DNA of 64,000 bases, from NCBI GenBank assembly GCA_945898275.1, contig CAMDHZ010000002.1, forward strand, positions 69,007 to 133,006. The letters are read 5' to 3'. Position 1 is the first letter of the stretch. Every line of letters starts with the position of its first letter. This document shows, one piece after another, positions 2,769 through 32,224 of the stretch. A program made the translations under genes and the position numbers. Under the pieces are notes generated by a model. It ran no database searches. It was not told the origin of the DNA and was given only the letters and a program-made list of their open reading frames with translations. Origin of the DNA: Chitinophaga pinensis. GTDB taxonomy: Bacteria > Bacteroidota > Bacteroidia > UKL13-3.

Positions 2769-3575
2769 ATGAACTACGATCCAATAAAAAAAGATTTGGG
2801 AGTTGTTTTTAACAGTAGCCCATTTTTAAGAAAAATATTTTATCAACTTTTAGACCTTCTGCTTCTAAGAACTTGGCATGTGCACAGAGAATTAAAAGCT
2901 TGGATGAAAAATAAAACCTCAGCAAAAATTTTAGATGCCGGTTCAGGTTTTGGACAGTATAGCTTTTATATGGCTAAAAAAAACCAACAGTTTTCAATTG
3001 ATGCAGTAGATGTGAAAGAAGAGCAGATTGCTGATTGTAATAACTTTTTTGGAAAAGTTGGATTAAGCAATGCAAAGTTTGCCTTTGGAGACCTTACCAA
3101 ACACATTGCAGACAACAAATACGACCTCGTAATGTGTGTAGACGTAATGGAGCACATATTGGAAGATGTTACAGTTTTCAAAAATTTCAATAGCGCAATG
3201 AAATCTGGTGCTATGCTTTTAATTTCTACTCCAAGTGATCAGGGTGGTAGTGATGTTCATGAAGATACAGGCGAAAGCTTCATAGGTGAGCATGTGAGAG
3301 ATGGCTATCCTGTTGCAGAAATGGCAGATAAATTAAAGCAAGCTGGATTTAACAAAATGGAAATCCTATACAGCTATGGAAATCCTGGCAAAATTGCTTG
3401 GAAGCTAAGTATGAAACTGCCTATGTTAATGCTTAATACCAGTAAAGTATTCTTCCTTATTTTACCAGTTTGGTACCTTGTTACTTATCCCTTCTCCTAT
3501 TTATTAAATTGGATAGACACTAATAATAAGCATACAACTGGCACTGGGTTGATTGTGAAAGCTTGGAAAGACTAA
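2769..3575 (+). CDS. Class I SAM-dependent methyltransferase
   Basis: A 268-residue protein with a Rossmann-type methyltransferase fold. Motif I is ILDAGSGFGQYSFYMAKK (about residues 54-71), motif II lies around AVDVKEEQI, and the following acidic segment is LVMCVDVMEHI. A C-terminal hydrophobic stretch near residues 217-245 (PMLMLNTSKVFFLILPVWYL) suggests membrane association, as in lipid or quinone methyltransferases. The substrate cannot be told from sequence. It starts 2 bases after the rbfA stop and is followed 12 bases later by the permease gene, so the three are probably co-transcribed. Confidence 0.85.
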   Translation: MNYDPIKKDLGVVFNSSPFLRKIFYQLLDLLLLRTWHVHRELKAWMKNKTSAKILDAGSGFGQYSFYMAKKNQQFSIDAVDVKEEQIADCNNFFGKVGLSNAKFAFGDLTKHIADNKYDLVMCVDVMEHILEDVTVFKNFNSAMKSGAMLLISTPSDQGGSDVHEDTGESFIGEHVRDGYPVAEMADKLKQAGFNKMEILYSYGNPGKIAWKLSMKLPMLMLNTSKVFFLILPVWYLVTYPFSYLLNWIDTNNKHTTGTGLIVKAWKD

Positions 3576-28059: not shown

Positions 28060-30834
28060 ATGAGAAAACTCCTTCTACTTCTGTTGTGTAACAGTTTCAT
28101 TTTTCAAATAGTATTGGGTCAAACCGATACTGATTTTAAAAATGGTTATTTCCAAAAGGGTGATAGCCTTGCATTTTTATTAGATGAAAAAGTATATGGC
28201 ATAACAGCTGATTACTTTTTAGTTACTGGGGCTTTCAGGAATTGGAGTCAAGACCTTAAAGATGCAAATTGGCAGCTAAAATCAGTAGGAAACGGTAAAT
28301 GGATTTTATGGTTAAACAATAAAAATTTTGAAAAAGTGAAACCTTCACAACCTTTTAAATTTAGAACTTCTGAAGGAAAATGGCTTGATCCACCAAAAAT
28401 TGCAGAAAACATTGAAGGCGGCAACCTTGTGTTTCTAAAAGGTTTTGAACCGCTTTCCCTTGCAGCAACCATTTTAAATGATAGCACCATTGAAGCGAAT
28501 ATTACAGGAATTACTGAAGACGAGGCAGATGGCCCCTTTCTAAATAACCTAAGCCTGGTTAACGCAAAAAATTCACCTGTTTTAATAGATAAGGTTTACT
28601 ATAGTTTTACACCCTCTCCCAAACAAAAAAACTTAAATGGAGAGGTAATTGGCAAGGCCAATCTCATCTTAAAAATCACCAAAAACTTTGATAAGAGACG
28701 CGTTTATTATTTAAGTCATAACGGTTTGAACCTAAAAGAATTAGTGAGTTTTGACGGTTGGTTCAAAACGCTAAAAAGTAATAAAGAATTTGGTGCCAAT
28801 GTTAATGCACTTAAAACTGAAACCAGCTTTAGGGTATTTGCCCCAAGAGCAACAGCAGTTAAACTATACCTTTATCAATCAGCCACACAAACCAAAGCAG
28901 ATACAGTTTATGAATTGATTGCAGACAACCAAGGTGTTTGGGAAACAACAATTGCAAAAGACCTTGCTGGCTTTTGGTATGATTATACCGTTCATGGTTT
29001 TTCAGACCCTGGTAATTTCTTTTTTGAAACGCACCCAGTTCATGTAAGCGACCCATACGCTCGTGTTAGTGATGATAGTTTTGGCAAATGCAGAGTTGCT
29101 TACAAGACTTCTGCTGCTATGCCTTTGCCCAAAGGCCGACCAGTAATGGAATCGGTGATGGCGTATGAGGTGCATGTGCAAGACTTCACAGATTTGCTGC
29201 CTGTTTCGAATGATTTAAAGGGCACAATTGCTGCAATGGGTATTCCAAAACTCAAGAACAAAAAAGGTAAATCCATTGGTTTTGATTATTTAGTAAAACT
29301 TGGAATAAACACAGTACATCTAATGCCTGTGCAAGAAATGTTGCATTGGCCAAAAGACGAATGGGAGGCCGCTTTTAAAAATGACGCCTATATGATTGAG
29401 CAAGGAATTGCAACAGAAAATTACGATTGGGGCTATAGAACCTCCCATAGTTTTGCCATTGAAACACGGTACAGAAAAAAGGGAACAGAAGCTGGTCAGG
29501 AAAGAGAGCAATTTAGAGATTTGGTGGAAGCATTTCATAAAAAAGGAATTGCCGTTATTGTAGATTTTGTATTTAACCATACCGCAGAAAACATGGATGG
29601 TAGAGAGTATCTGTTTCATTTTAACGCATTCGACAAACAATATTATTATCGTACCAAGAACCTTGAACACATTGGAGAATATGGCAATGAAACCAAAAGT
29701 GAAAATAGATACATGGTACAACGTTGGATGATTGACCAATGCAAACATTTTATTGAAGAATTTGGAGTAGATGGTTTTAGAATTGATTTGGCTGGCCAAA
29801 CTGACAAGCAAACCTTAGTTAAATTAAAAGAAGCTTTACCAAAAGATATTATCATTTATGGAGAACCATGGATTGACAGCAATGACCCAACTTACAATAA
29901 AAACCCAGACTGGCATTGGTACAAAGAAGATGCTCCTATTTGCTATTTTAATGATGATACCAGAAACACCTTTAAAGGACCCGTTTTTGAATTAAACAGC
30001 AAAGAAAAAGACAGAGGTTGGGCAGGTGGAAATAGTGCATTGCGCAACGATGTAAAAAGAGCACTTATTTGCTCCTTCCCTACTCAAAAGAACATCAATA
30101 GTGCAATCAACTACTTAGACATTCATGATAATTTTGCCTTAGCAGACCAATTTGCTACCTATAATTTTGATGGCCGTTTTGGGGTAGATGAGGTTAATTA
30201 TAAAATCGCAGCCATTTTACTTTTTACCACTCCAGGACCTTTAGTTATGCACGGCGGTTCAGAAATGATGCGCAGTAAAGGAATGGCGCCTTTGATGGAA
30301 GTTGAAAAGGAAATTCCTAGCGGCAAAATTTACTTTCATGGAAAGCGCGATACCTATAACATGCGCAGCGCTAATCAGTTTGTTTGGGAAAATGTAGGTT
30401 TGGATCAGTACAAGAAAAAAATTACTGAATTTTCTAAAGCAACTCCTTATACTAATGCCAATTATTACAATATGCTAAACTATTGGAGTGCACTTATAGA
30501 ATTAAGAAAAAGACACCTTCTTCCTTTGACAACTTATCAATTCAAGAAGGAAAATTCTGCAACTTTAACAAGCAATAATTTTGAGTTTTTTGAACCAAAA
30601 GATGAGTCGGCACTAGGCTATATGATTGAACAAAAAATACTGGTTTTGTTAAATACTGGAGCAGAACACCAAGAATTCTTGATCAACTTGCCAGCAGGCA
30701 TTTGGAAGCAGGTTGGGAATGAAAACGCTATAGCCTTAGATGCAGGTTTTGGGAAATATTACGAGCAGGTTAACGGGGGCAAAAGAACTTTTAAATTATC
30801 CCCATTGAGCCTGCAAATTTGGATAAGAAATTAA
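28060..30834 (+). CDS. Exported type I pullulanase (GH13)
   Basis: A 924-residue secreted alpha-glucan debranching enzyme (signal RKLLLLLLCNSFIFQIVLG, then Gln). N-terminal beta-sandwich domains (about residues 25-330) include a CBM48-like part (TSFRVFAPRATAVKLYLYQ). The GH13 barrel carries the conserved regions in order: region I VIVDFVFNHTAE, region II GFRIDLAGQTD (nucleophile Asp), region III IIYGEPW (acid/base Glu) and region IV NYLDIHDN. A C-terminal beta domain follows. It cuts alpha-1,6 links of pullulan, starch or glycogen fragments. No sus genes are adjacent. It ends in the hairpin at 30840-30875. Confidence 0.9.
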   Translation: MRKLLLLLLCNSFIFQIVLGQTDTDFKNGYFQKGDSLAFLLDEKVYGITADYFLVTGAFRNWSQDLKDANWQLKSVGNGKWILWLNNKNFEKVKPSQPFKFRTSEGKWLDPPKIAENIEGGNLVFLKGFEPLSLAATILNDSTIEANITGITEDEADGPFLNNLSLVNAKNSPVLIDKVYYSFTPSPKQKNLNGEVIGKANLILKITKNFDKRRVYYLSHNGLNLKELVSFDGWFKTLKSNKEFGANVNALKTETSFRVFAPRATAVKLYLYQSATQTKADTVYELIADNQGVWETTIAKDLAGFWYDYTVHGFSDPGNFFFETHPVHVSDPYARVSDDSFGKCRVAYKTSAAMPLPKGRPVMESVMAYEVHVQDFTDLLPVSNDLKGTIAAMGIPKLKNKKGKSIGFDYLVKLGINTVHLMPVQEMLHWPKDEWEAAFKNDAYMIEQGIATENYDWGYRTSHSFAIETRYRKKGTEAGQEREQFRDLVEAFHKKGIAVIVDFVFNHTAENMDGREYLFHFNAFDKQYYYRTKNLEHIGEYGNETKSENRYMVQRWMIDQCKHFIEEFGVDGFRIDLAGQTDKQTLVKLKEALPKDIIIYGEPWIDSNDPTYNKNPDWHWYKEDAPICYFNDDTRNTFKGPVFELNSKEKDRGWAGGNSALRNDVKRALICSFPTQKNINSAINYLDIHDNFALADQFATYNFDGRFGVDEVNYKIAAILLFTTPGPLVMHGGSEMMRSKGMAPLMEVEKEIPSGKIYFHGKRDTYNMRSANQFVWENVGLDQYKKKITEFSKATPYTNANYYNMLNYWSALIELRKRHLLPLTTYQFKKENSATLTSNNFEFFEPKDESALGYMIEQKILVLLNTGAEHQEFLINLPAGIWKQVGNENAIALDAGFGKYYEQVNGGKRTFKLSPLSLQIWIRN
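28723..28732 (-). repeat. Dispersed 10-mer, GGTTTGAACC on plus (copy 10)
   Basis: Exact copy; encodes GLN in the pullulanase gene. Confidence 0.8.
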
Positions 30835-30843
30835 ATAAAAAAT

Positions 30844-30853
30844 GGTTTGAACC
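30844..30853 (-). repeat. Dispersed 10-mer, left arm of hairpin (copy 11)
   Basis: Exact copy, non-coding, forms the left arm of the pullulanase/glyA terminator. Confidence 0.85.
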
Positions 30854-30861
30854 TATGTTTA

Positions 30862-30871
30862 GGTTCAAACC
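30862..30871 (+). repeat. Dispersed 10-mer, right arm of hairpin (copy 12)
   Basis: Exact inverted copy, non-coding, right arm of the same hairpin. Confidence 0.85.
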
Positions 30872-30892
30872 ATTTAAAAAAGTATTATTTTA

Positions 30893-32164
30893 CTATTTAT
30901 AAAGCGGAAATGCTTGCATCATAGCATTTACCTCTTTTCTAACATTACCTATTAAAGCTTCATTATCGGCATTCATTAGCACTTGGTCTATAAACCCAAC
31001 AATAGTTGCCATGTGTTCTTCTTTTAAGCCACGAGAAGTAATAGCGGGAGTTCCAATTCTAATTCCAGATGTTACAAAAGGTGATTTATCATCAAAAGGA
31101 ACCATATTCTTATTAATGGTAATATCTGCTTTAATTAAAACATTCTCGGCAGCCTTTCCGCTGATTCCTTTGTTTCTTAAATCAATTAACATCAAATGAT
31201 TATCAGTACCGCCACTGATAATTTGGTAACCCAAATTCATAAACGCAGCAGCCATCGCTTGAGCATTGCTTCTCACTTGTTTAATGTAAGTTTGGTATTC
31301 TAGGGAAAGCGCTTCGCCAAATGCCACAGCTTTTGCGGCAATCACATGCTCTAGCGGTCCACCTTGTGTACCAGGAAAAACAGCGGCATCCAAAATGGCA
31401 CTCATCATTTTAATTTCTCCTTTTGGTGTGGTTTGACCCCATGGATTTTCAAAATCTTTTCCCATCATTATAATTCCACCTCTTGGCCCGCGCAAAGTTT
31501 TATGGGTAGTAGAAGTTACGATATGGCAATGCGGCATTGGGTCATTTAATAACTTGCCAGCAATTAAACCTGCTGGGTGAGAAATATCTGCTAATAATAA
31601 TGCTCCTGCTTCATCAGCTATTGTCCTTAATCGAGCATAATCCCAATCTCTGCTGTATGCAGAAGCACCACATATTATCATTTTTGGCTGTTCAACTTTT
31701 GCAATTTCAGCCACCTTATCCCAATTAATTAGACCTGTTTCTCTTTCTACGCCATAAAAAGAAGGTTTATATAGTTTTCCAGAAAAATTTACAGGAGAGC
31801 CGTGGGTTAAATGTCCACCATGCGATAAGTCAAAACCCAAAATCTTATCTCCAGGATTTAGGCAAGCTAGCATAACAGCAGCATTTGCTTGAGCGCCACT
31901 ATGTGGTTGGACATTAGCCCAAACAGCACCAAAAAGTTGTTTTAACCTATCAATGGCAATGTTTTCAACCTTATCAACTACTTCGCATCCACCATAATAA
32001 CGTTTTCCAGGTAATCCTTCAGCATATTTATTTGTTAATACGGAGCCTGCAGCCTCCATTACTTGAAGACTAACGAAGTTCTCTGATGCAATTAGTTCAA
32101 TACCGTGTTCTTGGCGGTTTTGCTCCTCTTGAATGAGGTCGAAAATTACCTTATCTCTGTTCAT
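30893..32164 (-). CDS. glyA: Serine hydroxymethyltransferase
   Basis: PLP enzyme interconverting serine and glycine with tetrahydrofolate; it supplies one-carbon units in the cytoplasm. The 423-residue product has the standard length and motifs: N-terminal [38 protein letters not shown] and the PLP lysine in [15 protein letters not shown] chose the ATG at 32164 ([15 protein letters not shown]) over the in-frame start at 32209 on the basis of the conserved N-terminus. It is divergent from the nucleotidyltransferase gene. Confidence 0.97.
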
Positions 32165-32224
32165 AAATTGAAACGTTTTGTTGAGCTGCAAAATAGTATT
32201 TTGAGTCATACTATGGAAAAAGTT

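What the first reader, a model, noticed from the sequence alone, without database searches (positions are those of the whole stretch)
30840..30875. Terminator made of an inverted pair of the dispersed word
Two copies in opposite orientation form a perfect 16-base stem with a 4-base loop between convergent genes pulA-like and glyA. In Neisseria and Pasteurellaceae a well-known share of uptake sequences occurs as such inverted pairs serving as terminators, so this supports the uptake-sequence reading.
Basis: partly seen in the sequence, partly recalled or inferred. Interest (0 to 1): 0.6.

Follow-up and report, generated by a model that had tools for sequence, protein, structure and literature searches.

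The report
Terminator hairpin from paired dispersed words
The hairpin is a real, conserved transcription stop signal behind glyA that happens to be built from two copies of a short word scattered about 785 times through this freshwater Bacteroidota genome; such paired stop signals are rare here, but the word itself, which has three 'dialects' within the genus, resembles the DNA-uptake tags of Neisseria and Haemophilus, in bacteria that lack the pilus machine those use.

Summary
It folds at about -22 kcal/mol and has a U-tract on the minus strand only, so it is best read as the intrinsic terminator of glyA, not of both genes. In a sister genome (94% identical DNA) all 32 stem bases are kept while flanks changed; in a more distant relative the gap has closed and the hairpin is gone. 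Genome-wide there are just 3 such pairs among 785 words (1.4 expected by chance), and 1 of 103 terminator-like hairpins in a 1.25-Mb sample uses the word. Pairs are enriched in one relative (18, 3.3 expected). The uptake-sequence idea gains more from other evidence: the word is genus-restricted, asymmetric, unoriented, conserved at DNA level, and has three dialects (GGTTTGAACC, GGTTCGAACC, CTGAACCAA) sharing GAACC. Against simple membership: type IV pilus ATPase and secretin are not detected in the genome. The terminator is ordinary; the dialected word is the interesting part.

The parts
30840..30855 (+). left arm of stem, contains word copy GGTTTGAACC (30844-30853)
30856..30859 (.). loop TGTT (one base differs in the sister genome)
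30860..30875 (-). right arm of stem, contains the opposed word copy (30862-30871)
30830..30842 (-). U-tract for the glyA transcript (minus strand ATTTTTTATTTAATTT, beginning in the base of the stem)
28060..30834 (+). pullulanase-like GH13 gene, stop codon 5 bases before the stem
30893..32209 (-). glyA, serine hydroxymethyltransferase; the gene most likely terminated by the hairpin

Best explanation
Two layers. (1) The hairpin is a Rho-independent terminator for glyA on the minus strand: glyA RNA folds into the 16-bp stem and is released at the U-rich stretch that follows. For pulA it is at most a 3'-end stem without a U-tract. Anatomy and conservation are shown; the transcript 3' end is inferred. 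(2) Its stem was assembled from two opposed copies of a genus-specific dispersed word, consensus T-rich, then TTY-GGTTTGAACC-AAA. The word most likely works as a self-recognition tag in DNA uptake or transformation, like DUS/USS, with three dialects in the genus; copies accumulate where DNA is free to hold them, above all in gaps behind genes, and now and then two opposed copies there are recruited as a terminator. The uptake role is inferred, not shown, and the machine cannot be the usual type IV pilus.
For: Terminator: perfect stem and fold; the only terminator-like site in 29.0-33.5 kb, on the minus strand; between sister genomes 0 of 32 stem bases changed and 1 of 4 loop bases, against about 5 of 22 flanking gap bases (my count); same class of long perfect stems otherwise found in gaps (28 of 33), with 103 of 1056 gene ends carrying such hairpins and 0 of 780 mid-gene controls. 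Word: 785 copies against 29 control; asymmetric 17-bp consensus with T-rich 5' flank; in coding sequence used in all frames that avoid a stop, both orientations; 73 of 83 copies conserved in G008 against 51% for shuffled 10-mers; density 1.73 per kb in convergent gaps, 0.56 codirectional, 0.28 divergent, 0.21 coding; three dialects sharing GAACC within one genus, the first not enriched in other genera; no co-orientation of neighbours (123 same, 164 opposite); inverted neighbours 41 against 5 tandem, P about 4e-8, driven by G013; ComEC in all 19 genomes.
Against: Only 3 pairs in this genome, not above chance; CTGAACCAA-dialect genomes show no pair excess. No type IV pilus ATPase above cut-off except one fragmentary hit in G003, and no secretin in any of 19 genomes. 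ComEC is widespread in bacteria, so its presence says little. No depletion of the word in G000-specific segments, though only 26 kb was tested. No uptake experiment exists for these metagenome-assembled genomes, to my knowledge.
Confidence: 0.6

Rival explanations
1. An ordinary glyA terminator whose stem matches the word twice through chance co-location of two frequent words in a gap; no functional link between word and termination.
For: Pair count in G000 is within chance; 102 of 103 terminator-like hairpins in the sample do not use the word; words in 3' gaps mostly lie alone or beside an independent terminator.
Against: Pairs are enriched in G013, and 6 of 52 terminator-like hairpins in a (pair-biased) G013 sample use the word; opposed arrangement preferred over tandem; stem extended beyond the words and conserved in both sisters. 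Compatible with layer 1 of the best explanation.
Confidence: 0.35
2. The dispersed word is the binding site of a chromosome-organising or regulatory DNA-binding protein (HIP1-like or nucleoid-protein site), and the hairpin is incidental.
For: The word is nearly palindromic (GGTT-YR-AACC; dialect GGTTCGAACC is a perfect palindrome); conserved at DNA level.
Against: Flanks are asymmetric (C at -1 in 59%, A at +11 in 96%); the third dialect CTGAACCAA is not palindromic; enrichment is behind genes rather than upstream of them.
Confidence: 0.22
3. The word is a Chi- or KOPS-type polar signal for recombination or chromosome segregation.
For: Genome-wide, short, over-represented.
Against: No shared orientation among neighbours (123 same, 164 opposite) and near-equal strands in every large contig.
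Confidence: 0.04
4. The word is the remnant or end of a small transposable or REP-like element.
For: Dispersed, many copies; some pairs form hairpins.
Against: Conservation is confined to about 17 bp with no longer body; most copies lie inside open coding frames.
Confidence: 0.04

Closest known systems
DUS-containing terminators of Neisseria (and USS pairs of Pasteurellaceae)
   Same: Two opposed copies of a dispersed genome-wide word form the stem of a Rho-independent terminator behind a gene (PMC2397512, PMC3630211).
   Different: There the arrangement is in high numbers in every DUS genome; here 3 pairs in this genome (18 in one relative).
DNA uptake sequence dialects of the Neisseriaceae (Frye et al. 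2013, PMC3630211)
   Same: Short over-represented word, invariant core with lineage dialects, in and out of genes, both strands.
   Different: Different phylum and word; no type IV pilus ATPase or secretin found; uptake untested.
Natural transformation of Riemerella anatipestifer (Bacteroidota; PMC8459023)
   Same: Shows that Bacteroidota can transform with ComEC, DprA, ComF, RecA and envelope proteins without homologues in the well-known machinery.
   Different: The term 'uptake sequence' does not occur in that paper; weak DUF5689 hits here do not establish the same machine.

Membership tests
Intrinsic (Rho-independent) terminator | Stable stem-loop just behind a stop codon | tested here: met
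   16-bp stem, -21 to -23 kcal/mol, 17 nt behind the glyA stop
Intrinsic (Rho-independent) terminator | U-tract following the stem, glyA strand | tested here: met
   TTTATTTAA after the stem
Intrinsic (Rho-independent) terminator | U-tract following the stem, pulA strand (bidirectional use) | tested here: not met
   AAAAAAGTA after the stem; no plus-strand site in scan
Intrinsic (Rho-independent) terminator | Mapped transcript 3' end | not testable with these tools
   needs Term-seq or 3' RACE
DNA uptake sequence (DUS/USS) | Short word over-represented genome-wide, both strands, in and out of genes | tested here: met
DNA uptake sequence (DUS/USS) | Lineage dialects around a constant core | tested here: met
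   three dialects in the genus sharing GAACC
DNA uptake sequence (DUS/USS) | Inverted pairs as terminators in high numbers | tested here: not met
   3 pairs in this genome; more nearly met in G013 with 18
DNA uptake sequence (DUS/USS) | Type IV pilus uptake machine with a pilin receptor | tested here: not met
   no convincing PF00437, no PF00263 in 19 genomes
DNA uptake sequence (DUS/USS) | ComEC inner-membrane channel | tested here: met
   19 of 19 genomes, not specific
DNA uptake sequence (DUS/USS) | Measured preference in uptake or transformation | not testable with these tools
   experiment needed
DNA uptake sequence (DUS/USS) | Depletion in foreign or accessory DNA | tested here: inconclusive
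   0.25 per kb shared, 0.30 per kb in only 26 kb of G000-specific segments
Chi / KOPS | Orientation bias along the chromosome | tested here: not met

The most novel reading that the evidence does not exclude
A freshwater Bacteroidota genus has its own dialected DNA-uptake sequence, recognised by an outer-membrane uptake machine that is not a type IV pilus, and occasionally recruits opposed copies as terminators: an origin independent of those in Neisseria and Pasteurellaceae.
Probability: 0.5. Interest if true: 0.85.

Novelty: new variant of a known kind. Interest (0 to 1): 0.55.

Why it matters
The hairpin alone is an ordinary terminator. But the word it is built from would, if it is an uptake sequence, be a DUS/USS-like system outside the two well-known lineages, with within-genus dialects, in bacteria that lack the pilus machine thought to read such words. 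That would make testable whether uptake specificity can evolve without a pilin receptor, and what carries DNA across the outer membrane in Bacteroidota transformation. My literature searches found no report of this word as an uptake sequence, within the limits of the library.

Tried and rejected
A position-weight iteration symmetrised the motif because each site matches both strands, so it was not used for claims. A first binomial test used 43 against 5 pairs by a counting slip; the right count, 41 against 5, was recomputed. Chi/KOPS was rejected. REP or transposon remnant was rejected. Bidirectional terminator was rejected for lack of a plus-strand U-tract. The DUF5689 search for a Riemerella-like uptake protein gave only weak hits, several in very large proteins, and settles nothing. 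A paper search with the exact word returned 31 papers; none of the 20 listed concerns bacterial uptake sequences by title.

Full report
Observation. The sequence at 30840-30875 is AAATGGTTTGAACCTA-TGTT-TAGGTTCAAACCATTT, a perfect 16-bp inverted repeat with a 4-nt loop, exactly as reported. It lies in a 58-bp gap between a pullulanase-like GH13 gene (28060-30834, plus) and glyA (30893-32209, minus). As RNA it folds at -22.7 (plus) and -21.3 kcal/mol (minus), z about -7 and -8. The 10-mer inside each arm, GGTTTGAACC, is the commonest 10-mer of the window (22 copies) and occurs 785 times in the 3.52-Mb genome against 29 for the reversed word.

Terminator. On the minus strand the stem is followed by TTTATTTAA; on the plus strand by AAAAAAGTA. 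A terminator scan of 29.0-33.5 kb finds one site, this one, minus strand only. So it fits an intrinsic terminator of glyA, and not a bidirectional one. In G008, the sister genome (94.3% identical DNA over 331 kb; its contig C1 has the length of JAIYAT010000039.1, the source of L021), the stem is unchanged and the only difference in the hairpin is one loop base, while the short flanks differ at about five of 22 positions (my count). In the next relative, L022, the two genes abut and no hairpin exists. Among the sequences compared the hairpin is therefore confined to the G000/G008 lineage, and held there.

Are such pairs common? Exact opposed pairs of GGTTTGAACC within 30 bp, arranged like the one here: 3 in this genome (1.4 expected from uniform placement, P = 0.16), 18 in G013 (3.3 expected, P about 1e-8), 4 in G008 (1.5 expected), none in the other 16 genomes of the genus. 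The opposite arrangement gives 1, 12 and 1 (plus 2 in G002), and tandem pairs 0, 4 and 0 (plus 1 in G001). Over the genus opposed neighbours outnumber tandem ones 41 to 5 (P about 4e-8); some of these pairs are shared by descent or duplicated, so they are not all independent. Of the three pairs in this genome, one is this terminator, one is in a codirectional gap (C27), and the third (C6) has a G008 counterpart of the same sequence inside a predicted gene. Terminator-like hairpins follow 103 of 1056 predicted genes in the 1.25-Mb sample and 0 of 780 mid-gene controls; only this one contains the word. In a G013 sample chosen around its pairs, 6 of 52 do. Most other words behind genes stand alone, some beside an unrelated terminator. 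Neisseriaceae with DUS have such pairs in high numbers (PMC3630211).

What the word is. Its consensus is asymmetric: T-rich stretch, TTY, GGTTTGAACC, AAA (A at +11 in 96%), over about 17 bp, with nothing longer shared. Of 297 copies in the sample 242 are inside genes, in every frame that avoids an in-frame stop, and density is 0.21 per kb in genes, 0.28 in divergent, 0.56 in codirectional and 1.73 in convergent gaps; G013 shows the same order with higher gap densities, in a sample chosen around pairs. Neighbouring copies have no common orientation. 73 of 83 copies are intact in G008 against 51% for shuffled 10-mers. So it is a DNA-level signal, not a coding motif, not polar, and not an upstream regulatory site.

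Dialects. The word is confined to the genus among the relatives searched. Genomes of the genus poor in it have another: CTGAACCAA (for example 999 copies in G001, 866 in G007, 518 in G004) or GGTTCGAACC (300 in G012, 272 in G010, 186 in the incomplete G016). All three share GAACC, usually followed by AA. Two genomes (G017, G018) are poor in two of the words and were not counted for CTGAACCAA. This constant-core, variable-flank pattern resembles the DUS dialects of the Neisseriaceae, which share a CTG core (PMC3630211).

Machine. ComEC is present in all 19 genomes but is widespread in bacteria. The type II/IV assembly ATPase (PF00437) has no convincing match and the secretin (PF00263) none, so the uptake machine of Neisseria and Haemophilus is not detectable. 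Riemerella anatipestifer, also Bacteroidota, transforms with ComEC, DprA, ComF, RecA and envelope proteins without homologues in the well-known machinery (PMC8459023), so absence of pili does not exclude uptake. A search for one of the Riemerella domains (DUF5689) was inconclusive.

Verdict. The hairpin is a genuine, ordinary, one-directional terminator. Its word works like an uptake sequence on genomic evidence, but membership in the DUS/USS family is not claimed, because the pilus machine was tested and not found, inverted pairs are few, and uptake is untested. Limits: metagenome-assembled genomes; genes called by a simple coding-potential script; 36% of the genome sampled for gene context, though word and pair counts are genome-wide; exact-match words only for pair counts.

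Noticed in passing
L124 (G013:C49) at 3374, 4863 and 8211: Three identical units GGTTCAAACCATATTGCTTTTAATATTGGTTTGAACC in codirectional gaps within 5 kb, apparently duplicated with their surroundings.
   Followed up: no
L055 (G000:C6:132497) and L054 (G008:C6:171922): An opposed word pair 24 bp apart with identical sequence in both sister genomes, inside a predicted gene in G008; the reason for its conservation was not examined.
   Followed up: no
L025 around 12775: A single GGTTTGAACCAA one base behind the pulA-like stop codon in a relative where the following DNA is not glyA; a possible intron or other insertion follows.
   Followed up: no
G000 C1:120293 (gap between convergent genes): A word copy lies between the arms of a separate terminator-like stem (AAGACTTTCTTTTCT...AAGATAAGAAAGTCTT), so words also occur inside hairpins without forming the stem.
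   Followed up: partly
G003:C9 sample (L132-L137): A different over-represented set (GGTCGCGAC, CGACCTGTC, CAGGTCGCG) appears 8 times each in the two-strand count over 120 kb, perhaps an interspersed repeat.
   Followed up: no
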